Below, one piece after another: positions 2,504 through 10,640 of a stretch of 25,960 nt of DNA. This DNA is from a virus, in the IMG/VR virus record IMGVR_UViG_3300028025_000845, positions 1 through 25,960 of that record; one strand, given 5' to 3'. The notes beneath the pieces are model-generated. The model had not been told where the DNA came from and made no database searches. It saw only the letters and a list, made by a program, of their open reading frames with translations. Position numbers and translations under genes: made by a program. The stretch's first letter is position 1. Each line of letters opens with the position of its first letter.

Positions 2504-4585
2504 TCAAATAGCCCGTTCTGTTGCCTCGGCATTTGCTGAATTTAATGCGCCTTTATCCATTGTGGCCAACACAAGAGCAATCTGTTGCTTCATTCTTTCA
2601 ATTTCTAGCCTTGTCTGCGTATTGATTACCGTGTCATTAGCTTGTGCATCCACACGCATCTGCATTTCATTACGGTCACTCTGTTCACGCAATTCAGCCT
2701 CATTAGCCCTTCCTGTCTCTTTCATCAGGGTGCGCTTAGTCTCAGAGTCTTGACGCAATTGCTCAACATCCATGCGGTTTTTCAGCATCAAATCTCTAGC
2801 TTCAAGCGCTTGTGTAAGGTCTTGAATCTGTTTCTGTGACATAGCCAGTTGCATCTGAACTTGTGGCGGTACTTTAGACTTATCGTCAATCTGAGCCATT
2901 GGGTTAGAGGCGGCAAGGCGGTCAGCAATGATGTCAGCGCCTGGCCAATCCATGTTGCGGAACACCAAGTCACCCGCCACTTGCATAAGTTCAGGCGCAG
3001 CGGCCAACAGAGGAAGCATATTGTCCACAGCCTCTTGACGCTTGCTGTTGTAGCCTGGCCCTGTCTCCATGACCACATCATATTGACCCACAGAAATGTC
3101 GTTTAGAACTCTACCAACAGAATCCCGTTGGTTGATCGTCAACAGTTCTGGTTTACCGTCATCACCAATGATTCGCATGACACGCTCTGTGTCGTAAATT
3201 TTAGGAATCAGGTCTAAGCAAATCTTGCCAACGTGACTGATTGAACGTGTTAGGTTGTCGTAATAGTCAAAGTTTGTTAGGTCAACTTGTTGTTGTTGGC
3301 CATTCAATGCTTTGCCTGAAATGTTGCCTTGACCAAGTTGTGCAGGGTCAAACACGCCCATAATGTTTTTAATATCATTGTCCACGCCCATTGCTGCGGC
3401 CATGATTCCCGCTTGTGGCGGCTCTGGCTGTAGTCGTGATGGAACTGGCGCAGGGCGACCGTCAATGTCAGTCTGTTTGTAACGCAGAACAGGGAATGAC
3501 TTGATGTTGGCATTTGCCCAATCTTGTTCATGTCCTTCGTCTTGGCCTTCAGCAATCAACCATTTAGCCTTTGGCGCTAATGCAACACCCTCAGTAATAG
3601 CGGTTTGCCAAAAGTTATACATACGCTGTGGGTCTTTAGCATAACGAATCATGCCAAACTTTTTGCGCTTGTCGCCAATGACAATGTGTCGGCCATAAAC
3701 AGGAACAATTGGGATGTATTTGCCAGCCCAATCACGTTCCTCAAGAATCTCAACCGCAGTCATCTTGCAATATTTGATGGTTTTCTTGAATGAATCACGC
3801 TTGTCCACCACCGTAATGCCGTAAGCCTCTAGGCGCTTAAAGAAGTCTTTGTCATCAGCAAATGTAGCCGTGCCATCGCTCAAAAGGTACAGAGTAGCCT
3901 TTTCTCTGACGGTGTAGTAATACTCAGCAAGGCGAATGTCCTCTTTGGTAATCCACTCAGACTGTGAGTCACCCGTTCCACGTTGTGTGAAACTTGTGCC
4001 ACCGTCATCAGCATCAGGGTACAGCTTGCGGAATTCCTCTTTCAGCATCATTGTTGTAATCAAACAACGGTCAGCGTCAGAGCCATCAGGTGCTACTGAA
4101 TTGGGATCAAAGTACACCGTAAATGGGTTATCTACAGGGTCAATGTAGATTTCCTGATCAAACGAATCTTCTGAAATGTAGTCAGTTCTGACCCGCATAT
4201 AGCCCCAACCCATGCGAACAGCGTATTCAAACGCATTGTCATAGGCATGGTCAGCATTGGAATTGACCTCAATGTGGCGAATGATGCCGCTAATTGTTTG
4301 TGCGTCAACCATGTCCTCATGCGTGTTTGTAGCATGGACTTTGATTCGGGGGCGTTGCTGGCGCTGCTGATTGGAAACTTGGCGGCAATAGTTATCCACC
4401 TTGTTAACCGTAATGCAAGGGCGTGACTCAAGATTGCGTGAGTTTTGCAGGGTAACTGGCCATTGATCACCAGCGCCAAACTTCAAATCCTCAAGCGCTT
4501 CCTGACGATTCATTGTGTCTGCATCGTTAGCAAACTTGAGAAACTCTATTGCCTCTTGAATTCGTTTGTCGTAATCATCAGCCAT
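2504..4585 (-). CDS. Portal protein, P22 gp1 family
   Basis: This 693-residue protein forms the dodecameric ring at one capsid vertex through which DNA is packaged and ejected; P22 portal is 725 residues. Visible family features are the N-terminal helix, then FGAGDQWP near residues 36-43, a segment RPCITVNKVDNYCRQVSNQQ, and AVRMGWGYMRVRTDY in the first 150 residues. The last 110 residues are long, Gln/Glu/Met-rich helix, as in the C-terminal barrel of P22 portal. The gene is preceded by AGGG spaced for ATG at 4585 and follows terminase large by 29 nt. It is full length without frameshifts. Confidence 0.9.
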   Translation of the reverse strand: MADDYDKRIQEAIEFLKFANDADTMNRQEALEDLKFGAGDQWPVTLQNSRNLESRPCITVNKVDNYCRQVSNQQRQQRPRIKVHATNTHEDMVDAQTISGIIRHIEVNSNADHAYDNAFEYAVRMGWGYMRVRTDYISEDSFDQEIYIDPVDNPFTVYFDPNSVAPDGSDADRCLITTMMLKEEFRKLYPDADDGGTSFTQRGTGDSQSEWITKEDIRLAEYYYTVREKATLYLLSDGTATFADDKDFFKRLEAYGITVVDKRDSFKKTIKYCKMTAVEILEERDWAGKYIPIVPVYGRHIVIGDKRKKFGMIRYAKDPQRMYNFWQTAITEGVALAPKAKWLIAEGQDEGHEQDWANANIKSFPVLRYKQTDIDGRPAPVPSRLQPEPPQAGIMAAAMGVDNDIKNIMGVFDPAQLGQGNISGKALNGQQQQVDLTNFDYYDNLTRSISHVGKICLDLIPKIYDTERVMRIIGDDGKPELLTINQRDSVGRVLNDISVGQYDVVMETGPGYNSKRQEAVDNMLPLLAAAPELMQVAGDLVFRNMDWPGADIIADRLAASNPMAQIDDKSKVPPQVQMQLAMSQKQIQDLTQALEARDLMLKNRMDVEQLRQDSETKRTLMKETGRANEAELREQSDRNEMQMRVDAQANDTVINTQTRLEIERMKQQIALVLATMDKGALNSANAEATERAI

Positions 4586-9529: not shown

Positions 9530-9552
<23 letters not shown>
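9163..9552 (-). CDS. Replication protein P-like (helicase-loader role)
   Basis: A 129-residue protein. I chose ATG at 9552 because GGAGG lies 8 nt upstream. The segment IYGAPFNRHFDGLDPEFVRQ followed by EWKGQIGKFL and later PSAIKFRNLCNQ matches the pattern of phage replication P proteins as I know it. It is shorter than lambda P (233 residues), with a short C-terminal helix (AEAMAKLAELRKQFGR). It overlaps the end of the O-like gene by 23 nt. The likely job is to bring the host DnaB helicase to the phage origin. The family fit is good, but the mechanism is inferred. Confidence 0.72.
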
Positions 9553-10213
<661 letters not shown>

Positions 10214-10216
10214 AAA

Positions 10217-10234
10217 AGCCCAAAAAAAAGGGCT
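10217..10234 (-). promoter_or_regulatory. Alternative hairpin just before the replication gene
   Basis: On the minus strand AGCCC, eight T and GGGCT form a small hairpin ending 3 nt before ATG at 10213. Its AGCCC arm is also the 3' end of the long stem at 10230-10304, so the two folds exclude each other. With the long stem formed, the T8 run directly follows a stem, giving an intrinsic-terminator shape. Confidence 0.55.
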
Positions 10235-10304
10235 ACACCTGAAGTCTCACCCTTGCGGATGTTGGCGGACTGGCGTAGTAACCAGCAGACTTCATGTGTA
10301 ACCC
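10230..10304 (-). ncRNA. C4-type antisense RNA candidate (three-way junction)
   Basis: Read on the minus strand, GGGTTACACATGAAGTCT (10304-10287) pairs with AGACTTCAGGTGTAGCCC (10247-10230): 18 positions with one G-U wobble and one mismatch. Inside are two hairpins: GCTGG/CCAGT around TTACTACG, and CATCC/GGGTG closing a GCAA tetraloop. All three wobbles are G-U only on the minus strand (C-A on plus), so the RNA is most likely leftward. Eight T follow. Size (75 nt) and shape match C4 RNAs of phages P1/P7 (77 nt), which bind a/b boxes in a target mRNA and silence it. Identity with the Rfam C4 family is inferred from architecture and boxes, not from a covariance search. Confidence 0.72.
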
Positions 10305-10324
10305 TACTACATTAACACCGCCAA
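10305..10324 (-). promoter_or_regulatory. a/b-type target boxes for the C4-like RNA
   Basis: On the minus strand, TTGGCGG (10324-10318) is fully complementary to CCGCCAA in the RNA junction (10268-10262). TGTAGTAG (plus 10304-10311) pairs with the whole 8-nt hairpin loop TTACTACG (six Watson-Crick pairs and two G-U). The boxes lie between the Cro-like stop codon and the RNA, as in reported c4-a1b1 arrangements. Confidence 0.7.
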
Positions 10325-10338
10325 GTGTTTGCATAATC

Positions 10339-10494
10339 TTACTCTAAAAACCAATCAGGACGCAACACCATCAATTGATAAAGCCGACCAGTTGGAATGG
10401 TTTTCCAGTTGTGTACTGCCGCCCTAGTAATGCCCAAAATTCTAGCAAGCTCACTCTGTGAGCCAGCCAATGTGATAGCTTTTTGTTTGTCCAT
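10339..10494 (-). CDS. Cro-like helix-turn-helix repressor
   Basis: A 51-residue protein from ATG at 10494. It has a clear helix-turn-helix: SQSELARILGITRAAVHNWK (residues 13-32), followed by IPTGRLYQL and a short C-terminal LRPDWF, typical of Cro/YdaS-like regulators. A longer frame to 10605 exists but would cross the promoter region and add an odd Cys-rich stretch. No ribosome site precedes ATG; instead TATACT lies seven bases upstream, suggesting leaderless mRNA. It probably binds the dyad at 10527-10542 and controls both its own promoter and the rightward promoter. No CI-like partner is visible in the window. Confidence 0.78.
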   Translation of the reverse strand: MDKQKAITLAGSQSELARILGITRAAVHNWKTIPTGRLYQLMVLRPDWFLE

Positions 10495-10500
10495 GCAACA

Positions 10501-10506
10501 AGTATA
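10501..10506 (-). promoter_or_regulatory. -10 element (TATACT) for leftward early transcript
   Basis: TATACT (5 of 6 consensus) lies so that transcription would begin at or next to the A of ATG 10494, giving a leaderless repressor mRNA like lambda cI from PRM. At 16-18 nt spacing the -35 region is poor and overlaps the operator-like dyad. Confidence 0.5.
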
Positions 10507-10526
10507 GCAAAATAAACATCGTGCTA

Positions 10527-10542
10527 GTTGCATAAATACAAC
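10527..10542. promoter_or_regulatory. Operator-like 16-bp dyad
   Basis: GTTGCATAAATACAAC is an inverted repeat with a single mismatched pair plus the centre. The half-site ATGCAAC recurs at 10493-10499 over the repressor start codon. Position between the two promoters suggests Cro-like repressor binding. Confidence 0.55.
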
Positions 10543-10569
10543 ATTAGGGTAAGTCCCTATAAAAAAGTC

Positions 10570-10597
10570 TTGCTGTGTGTTTAGTTTGATGTACAAT
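10570..10597 (+). promoter_or_regulatory. Rightward early promoter
   Basis: TTGCTG (10570-10575), a 16-nt spacer and TACAAT (10592-10597) form a sigma70-like promoter. The predicted start near 10604 gives a leader of about 37 nt with AAGGA before ATG 10641. Confidence 0.6.
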
Positions 10598-10640
10598 ACA
10601 CCCATGCCCTGAACTTCTTGGGGTCTTTTAAGGAATCAAA

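What the first reader, a model, noticed from the sequence alone, without database searches (positions are those of the whole stretch)
10230..10324. C4-type antisense RNA with its own a/b boxes between a Cro-like gene and a replication gene
A 75-nt minus-strand RNA has an 18-position closing stem, two internal hairpins (one with a GCAA tetraloop) and a T8 run. Just upstream lie TTGGCGG, fully complementary to the junction CCGCCAA, and TGTAGTAG, which pairs with the complete hairpin loop. Three G-U pairs exist only in the minus-strand RNA. P1/P7 C4 RNA has this architecture and silences an antirepressor transcript. Here no antirepressor is visible and the boxes precede a replication initiator, so the target may be phage replication itself or a superinfecting relative.
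Basis: partly seen in the sequence, partly recalled or inferred. Interest (0 to 1): 0.85.

Follow-up and report, generated by a model that had tools for sequence, protein, structure and literature searches.

The report
C4-like antisense RNA gating phage replication
Just in front of its replication gene this freshwater phage encodes a small RNA, ending in a transcription stop signal, whose loop matches a nearby target box; more than 20 loop/box versions have changed in step across related phages, which points to an RNA-based, type-specific switch on phage replication.

Summary
On the minus strand, a promoter-like site at the end of a P22-Cro-like gene leads into a hairpin displaying box a (TTGGCGG), box b (TGTAGTAG), then a ~75-nt RNA with an 18-position closing stem, a specificity hairpin whose whole loop complements box b, an unpaired CCGCCAA complementing box a, a GCAA hairpin and T8, 9 nt before the O/DnaD-like replication gene. 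IMG/VR gave 95 distinct homologous stretches (54 aligned). Box b and loop co-vary at all six pairs, with 21 loop types, while box a, its complement and the specificity stem are almost invariant. This is real RNA-RNA specificity.

It shares the core of P1 C4 RNA (CUGCUGG-loop-CCAGUC-YGYCAAC) and works like C4 and P4 CI. It is not in Rfam C4 or c4-a1b1: no hit, second hairpin on the other side of the core, own intrinsic terminator, no downstream a2/b2 copy. P4 CI is precedent for such an RNA shutting off replication.

Most likely the terminated RNA acts in trans on boxes of new transcripts to stop replication-gene transcription (autocontrol, same-type superinfection immunity). Trans action is inferred; a cis-only attenuator remains possible. 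Three other unclassified RNA types occupy the same slot in related phages.

The parts
10360..10365 (-). -35-like element TTGCGT (inside the 3' end of the cro-like gene)
   Evidence: TTGCNN -35-like hexamers recur 15-19 nt (mostly 16-18) upstream of the -10 site in homologues; the -35 score itself is not above shuffled sequence
10336..10341 (-). -10-like element TAAGAT, 18-nt spacer
   Evidence: TATRAT/TAARAT-type -10 ends 8-16 nt before TTGGCGG in most of 90 distinct upstream regions; mean 4.9 of 6 matches against 3.8 in shuffles
10314..10329 (-). 5' hairpin AACAC-TTGGCG-GTGTT displaying box a
   Evidence: loop invariant, stem covaries (aacac/gtgtt, aacgc/gcgtt, aatgc/gcatt, aatccc/gggatt, cacgc/gcgtg), 4 of 5 pairs with changes on both sides
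10318..10324 (-). box a TTGGCGG (target of CCGCCAA)
   Evidence: invariant in all 54 aligned homologues; only copy in the window positioned with box b
10304..10311 (-). box b TGTAGTAG (specificity box, pairs with the hairpin loop)
   Evidence: covaries with the loop
10230..10304 (-). ~75-nt C4-like RNA: closing stem 10304-10287 with 10247-10230
   Evidence: fold; 14 of 17 closing-stem pairs with changes on both sides
10269..10286 (-). specificity hairpin GCTGG-TTACTACG-CCAGT
   Evidence: stem invariant in A1; variant stems GCCGG/CCGGT (L781) and GGGTG/CACC (L783)
10274..10281 (-). specificity loop TTACTACG, complementary to box b
   Evidence: 21 loop sequences among homologues, complemented by their own box
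10262..10268 (-). single-stranded junction CCGCCAA, complementary to box a
   Evidence: invariant; P1 C4 has CTGTCAA at the same place with TTGACAG boxes
10248..10261 (-). GNRA-capped hairpin CATCC-GCAA-GGGTG
10222..10229 (-). T8 tract completing an intrinsic terminator with the closing stem
   Evidence: T-tract retained in homologues; next gene's ATG 8-16 nt after it in 89 of 91
9530..10213 (-). O/DnaD-like replication initiation protein gene, 227 aa
   Evidence: phrog_26426 replication protein 7e-14, phrog_678 O-like 1e-12
10339..10494 (-). Cro-like regulator gene (51 aa from ATG 10494)
   Evidence: P22_Cro 8e-9, YdaS 2e-9 (scanned from the longer ORF 10339-10605)

Best explanation
This is a C4/CI-like antisense control element for the phage replication operon. 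SHOWN from sequence: a conserved promoter-like site followed by a leader with boxes a and b, followed by a C4-like RNA that is at the same time an intrinsic terminator directly before the replication gene, with box/loop pairing kept by compensatory change. INFERRED: most transcripts stop at T8 and leave a stable RNA of about 75-110 nt. This RNA binds boxes a and b of new leaders in trans, by kissing of loop with box b plus CCGCCAA with box a. That keeps the boxes from pairing in cis with their own downstream copy and so favours the terminator. High RNA level therefore shuts off replication-gene expression (autocontrol and same-specificity superinfection immunity); low RNA level at the start of infection allows read-through. 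The box/loop pair sets the specificity type.
For: Box-b/loop helix: 6 of 6 pairs with changes on both sides, 95.9% of cells paired against 80.3 +/- 1.2 in shuffles and 16-55% when slid; own box/loop mean 6.28 Watson-Crick pairs against 3.76 when boxes and loops of different types are swapped, 23 pair types; L079 is a G-U intermediate between GTAGTA/TACTAC and GTAATA/TATTAC. Specificity diversifies faster than the scaffold: among 267 pairs with an identical closing stem, box b and loop differ at 30% and 25% of sites, hairpin 3 at 7%, box a, junction and hairpin 2 at 0%. Shared core with P1 C4. Geometry: box b abuts the closing stem base and its partner loop lies about 23 bp away, so the pairing cannot form in cis once the stem is complete. 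Prefix folding predicts a transient cis a-a' helix before the 3' arm is made, replaced later by the terminator. T-tract to ATG spacing of 8-16 nt holds whatever gene follows. P4 precedent (PMC4825925).
Against: No transcript, no termination assay and no infection data. Covariation alone does not separate trans from cis pairing. No second a/b target site was found in the window, and the extra a/b matches listed in related loci (first 30 of 101 shown) are the element's own complement. 17 of 18 contigs lack a tyrosine integrase and all lack an S24 repressor, so classical prophage immunity is not evident. The predicted cis a-a' helix is weak and might be displaced before RNA polymerase reaches T8.
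Confidence: 0.6

Rival explanations
1. Cis-only attenuator: boxes a and b are antiterminator sequences that pair with their own junction and loop in the same nascent RNA and compete with the terminator; no trans-acting RNA, no immunity.
For: Every complete box hairpin found is followed by its own C4-like element, 72 of 72, no orphan targets; prefix folding predicts a cis a-a' helix before the terminator closes.
Against: Fast, coordinated change of box and loop on an unchanged scaffold has no obvious benefit in a purely cis switch; the homologous-looking P1 and P4 RNAs act in trans.
Confidence: 0.25
2. Trans-acting antisense RNA that mainly targets something else (a superinfecting relative's leader, a satellite or a host RNA) or acts on translation of the downstream gene; the upstream boxes serve to titrate or process the RNA.
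For: Loop diversity is immunity-like; in P1 the C4 RNA acts through boxes near a ribosome binding site; in type B of the same locus the loop complements the region just before the start codon.
Against: No other box pair found in the window; the element is tightly coupled to the next gene's start.
Confidence: 0.1
3. Ordinary long terminator/hairpin between cro and rep; boxes are coincidental.
For: Stem plus T8 is a good intrinsic terminator.
Against: Box/loop covariation with 0 of 500 shuffles, invariant box a and junction, conserved 5' hairpin and -10 site.
Confidence: 0.02

Closest known systems
P1/P7 C4 antisense RNA (Rfam RF01695) with a1b1 boxes (RF03163)
   Same: Upstream a/b boxes; closing stem; specificity hairpin CUGCUGG-loop-CCAGUC followed by single-stranded YGYCAAC; a box complements the junction, b box complements the loop; a tetraloop side hairpin
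   Different: Side hairpin lies 3' of the junction instead of 5' of the specificity hairpin; RNA ends in its own U-tract; no a2/b2 copy downstream; box a sits in a hairpin loop; next gene is a replication gene, not icd/ant; no hit to either Rfam model
Satellite phage P4 CI RNA (scores 74.9 bits with RF01695)
   Same: RNA encoded in the leader of the replication operon, target upstream of it (seqA); [quoted passage not shown]
   Different: P4 also has seqC downstream and processing of a longer transcript; no U-tract after P4 CI in the record; structure and sequence not alignable by covariance model
Plasmid countertranscript attenuation (pT181/pIP501 type, from general knowledge)
   Same: Small RNA controls rep through transcription attenuation; loops set specificity (incompatibility)
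   Different: Here the RNA is encoded on the same strand as its target and matches it only through two short boxes

Membership tests
Rfam C4 (RF01695) | Covariance-model score at or above 45 bits | tested here: not met
   No hit at E<=10 in window or 5 relatives, nor in variants L781 and L783; P1 68.8, P4 74.9 bits
Rfam C4 (RF01695) | Order: tetraloop hairpin, then specificity hairpin, then a' junction, inside the closing stem | tested here: not met
   Window order is specificity hairpin, junction, tetraloop hairpin
Rfam C4 (RF01695) | Core GCYGG-loop-CCRGU-NYGYCAAC | tested here: met
   GCTGG-TTACTACG-CCAGTCCGCCAAC; L781 has GCCGG..CCGGTCCGCCAAC, closest to the Rfam consensus
Rfam C4 (RF01695) | a and b boxes complementary to junction and loop | tested here: met
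Rfam C4 (RF01695) | RNase P-processed RNA silencing an antirepressor transcript | not testable with these tools
   No antirepressor next to the element; processing needs experiment
Rfam c4-a1b1 (RF03163) | Covariance-model hit upstream of the RNA | tested here: not met
   none; P1 control 51 bits
P4 CI-type immunity RNA | Leader of the replication operon with upstream target box | tested here: met
P4 CI-type immunity RNA | Second target (seqC) downstream of the RNA | tested here: not met
P4 CI-type immunity RNA | RNA in trans causes transcription termination | not testable with these tools
   needs assay
Intrinsic terminator | Stable stem followed by a U-tract | tested here: met

The most novel reading that the evidence does not exclude
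Freshwater phages that mostly lack integrase and CI repressor carry, in one slot before the replication gene, exchangeable RNA cassettes of at least four architectures (A-D), each with a co-varying box and loop and together more than 80 specificity types: a large, diversifying RNA incompatibility/superinfection-immunity system that sets which related phages may replicate in the same cell, in viruses without evident lysogeny.
Probability: 0.35. Interest if true: 0.88.

Novelty: new variant of a known kind. Interest (0 to 1): 0.7.

Why it matters
RNA-based phage immunity is known mainly from P1/P7 and P4-like elements. Here a rearranged C4-like RNA that is its own terminator recurs across a large group of uncultured freshwater phages with at least 21 loop types, and related phages use three further RNA designs in the same place. 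That makes specificity-by-loop testable on natural variants and suggests superinfection or copy-number control by RNA in phages that look virulent. The elements are absent from Rfam 15, so annotation pipelines miss them.

Tried and rejected
Rfam hits to mir-87 and other families were chance-level. A 15-base scan of genome contigs was too short; none of the 118 loci showed the full element. A specific core pattern gave 0 of 399 Burkholderiales genomes, so no prophage or host was found; a covariance search of four genomes was also empty but had no positive control. Listed second a/b sites were the antisense of the element itself. Own model R1 finds the window (117.5 bits) but not P1 C4, P4 CI or types B-D, so I did not merge the types. 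P1 c4 is not annotated in the record stretches I opened first; the Rfam search located it. Limnohabitans phage DC33 and MW202640 have related rep genes but no comparable element next to them. Type B box/loop statistics are weak because its sequences are G/C-simple (6.0 against 4.6).

Full report
OBSERVATION. The minus strand of 10230-10324 was re-read and folded. The fold is strongly non-random on the minus strand (z -5.4 for 10220-10310) and weak on the plus strand (z -2.0 for 10217-10330). Added here: box a (TTGGCGG) is shown in the loop of a 5' hairpin (10329-10314); a promoter-like site TTGCGT-18-TAAGAT (10365-10336) places the likely start at about 10329; T8 directly after the closing stem makes the RNA an intrinsic terminator; the replication gene starts 9 nt later.

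CONTEXT. The downstream gene is an O/DnaD-like replication protein, the upstream one a P22-Cro/YdaS-like regulator. The window is a 25,960-base IMG/VR virus record with a portal, terminase, Sak annealing protein, YqaJ exonuclease and lysozyme. No tyrosine integrase, serine recombinase or S24 repressor was found in it.

RELATIVES. Searches with rep, cro and the core sequence gave hundreds of loci; 95 distinct stretches carry the element, 63 distinct element sequences when trimmed. In the 54-sequence alignment A1 44 pairs including both box pairings were counted: 98.7% paired, 25 pairs with changes on both sides, 232 such cells, 0 of 500 shuffles. Box b and loop alone: 6 of 6 pairs covary. Box a and CCGCCAA never vary in A1; outside A1 the specificity stem also varies with compensation (L781 GCCGG/CCGGT; L783 GGGTG/CACC). 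Swapping boxes between specificity types lowers the longest match from 6.28 to 3.76. Among pairs with identical closing stems, box and loop are the most variable parts. This comparison is conditioned on the closing stem, but hairpin 3 and the 5' stem, which are not conditioned, change two to four times less.

PLACEMENT. The T-tract is followed by an ATG after 8-16 nt in 89 of 91 elements with a callable gene, whether that gene is rep, a DUF1376-looking replication protein (by eye), a GIY-YIG- or HNH-looking endonuclease or a small ORF. In L050 and L054 rep follows the endonuclease (coordinates). So the element is tied to the start of this operon. Every complete box hairpin found by its own pattern is followed by a C4-like core.

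COMPARISON. P1 C4 and P4 CI were taken from their records as controls. The window shares with P1 the string CTGCTGG-loop-CGCCAGTC-YG-YCAAC and the pairing plan (P1 boxes TTGACAG and TTAGTG; window TTGGCGG and TGTAGTAG). It differs in hairpin order, in the terminal U-tract, in lacking a2/b2 and in its target gene. Neither Rfam model hits the window or its variants and my model R1 does not hit P1 or P4. I therefore say it works like C4/CI and may share ancestry through the core, but is not a member of the Rfam families as defined. P4 CI RNA is described as preventing expression of P4 replication genes by premature termination through upstream and downstream targets (PMC4825925); P1 C4 acts on ant mRNA near its ribosome binding site (PMC12197685).

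MECHANISM. Box b touches the base of the closing stem and its partner loop is at the far end, so the box-b/loop pairing cannot coexist in cis with the complete stem (inference from geometry). Folding of growing transcripts predicts a cis a-a' helix while polymerase is between about 10262 and 10244, then replacement by the terminator. The natural reading is an attenuator in which RNA made by earlier termination occupies the boxes in trans and tips new transcripts into termination. That would give negative feedback on rep and block replication of incoming phages with the same type. The steps from 'RNA is made' onward are inferred. A cis-only attenuator is the main rival.

OTHER RNA TYPES IN THE SAME SLOT. 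Right after near-identical cro genes (for example 98% in L082 type A and in L084 type B) other phages carry type B (loop complementary to the sequence just before the next start codon), type C (5' hairpin with GTGGCA, 10-nt box and loop; 62 distinct pairs in 92 elements; 9.4 own against 5.2 swapped) or type D (GTAGGAA/TTCCTAC, GTGAGAA/TTCTCAC, GTGGAAA/TTTCCAC). None matches Rfam at gathering thresholds. Of 32 virus records of 26-58 kb (types A-D, including the circular 34.7-kb GenBank genome MW202462, deposited as complete, which has type A at 109 bits) only one has a tyrosine integrase. Most are contigs, so absence is not proof of a virulent lifestyle.

LIMITS.

Noticed in passing
L121 and L123 just downstream of the cro match at 3001-3147; loci: Type C RNA: promoter TATAAT, hairpin with GTGGCA loop, 9-12 nt box matching a hairpin loop, long closing stem and T-run; 62 distinct box/loop pairs in 92 elements, no Rfam match.
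   Followed up: partly
L125, L126, L133, L136, L140 just downstream of the cro match: Type D RNA: box GTAGGAA/GTGAGAA/GTGGAAA matching loop TTCCTAC/TTCTCAC/TTTCCAC inside a terminator-ended hairpin.
   Followed up: partly
L084, L090, L092, L117 just downstream of the cro match: Type B RNA (GAAACACGGCTAGG...CTGCCGCAGTTTC): an internal loop complements the sequence just before the next gene's ATG, sometimes as a tandem repeat (GGGTCT...GGGTCT).
   Followed up: partly
L050, L054, L055, L171, L183, L206, L213, L225, L262: Homing-endonuclease-like ORFs (GIY-YIG or HNH by eye) sit immediately after the T-run; in L050 and L054 rep follows, keeping the 8-14 nt T-run to ATG spacing.
   Followed up: partly
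L276: 12838(-) and 3692(-): One contig carries both a type A core and a type D core.
   Followed up: no
MW202462.1 (L765 913-1015): GenBank circular phage genome with an unannotated type A element; an antisense hypothetical ORF (33654-33896 +) is annotated partly over it.
   Followed up: yes
L135 downstream of the element at 3164-3271: The usual rep start ATG reads AGG, so rep in this contig may be broken or start elsewhere.
   Followed up: no
L153 3172-3247 and 4500-4565: Two int-alpA RNA (RF02996) hits near a divergent cro-like relative.
   Followed up: no
PQ492659.1 (Limnohabitans phage DC33): Classed as Inoviridae in its record although it is 39 kb with a rep gene related to tailed-phage genes; the taxonomy looks wrong.
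   Followed up: no
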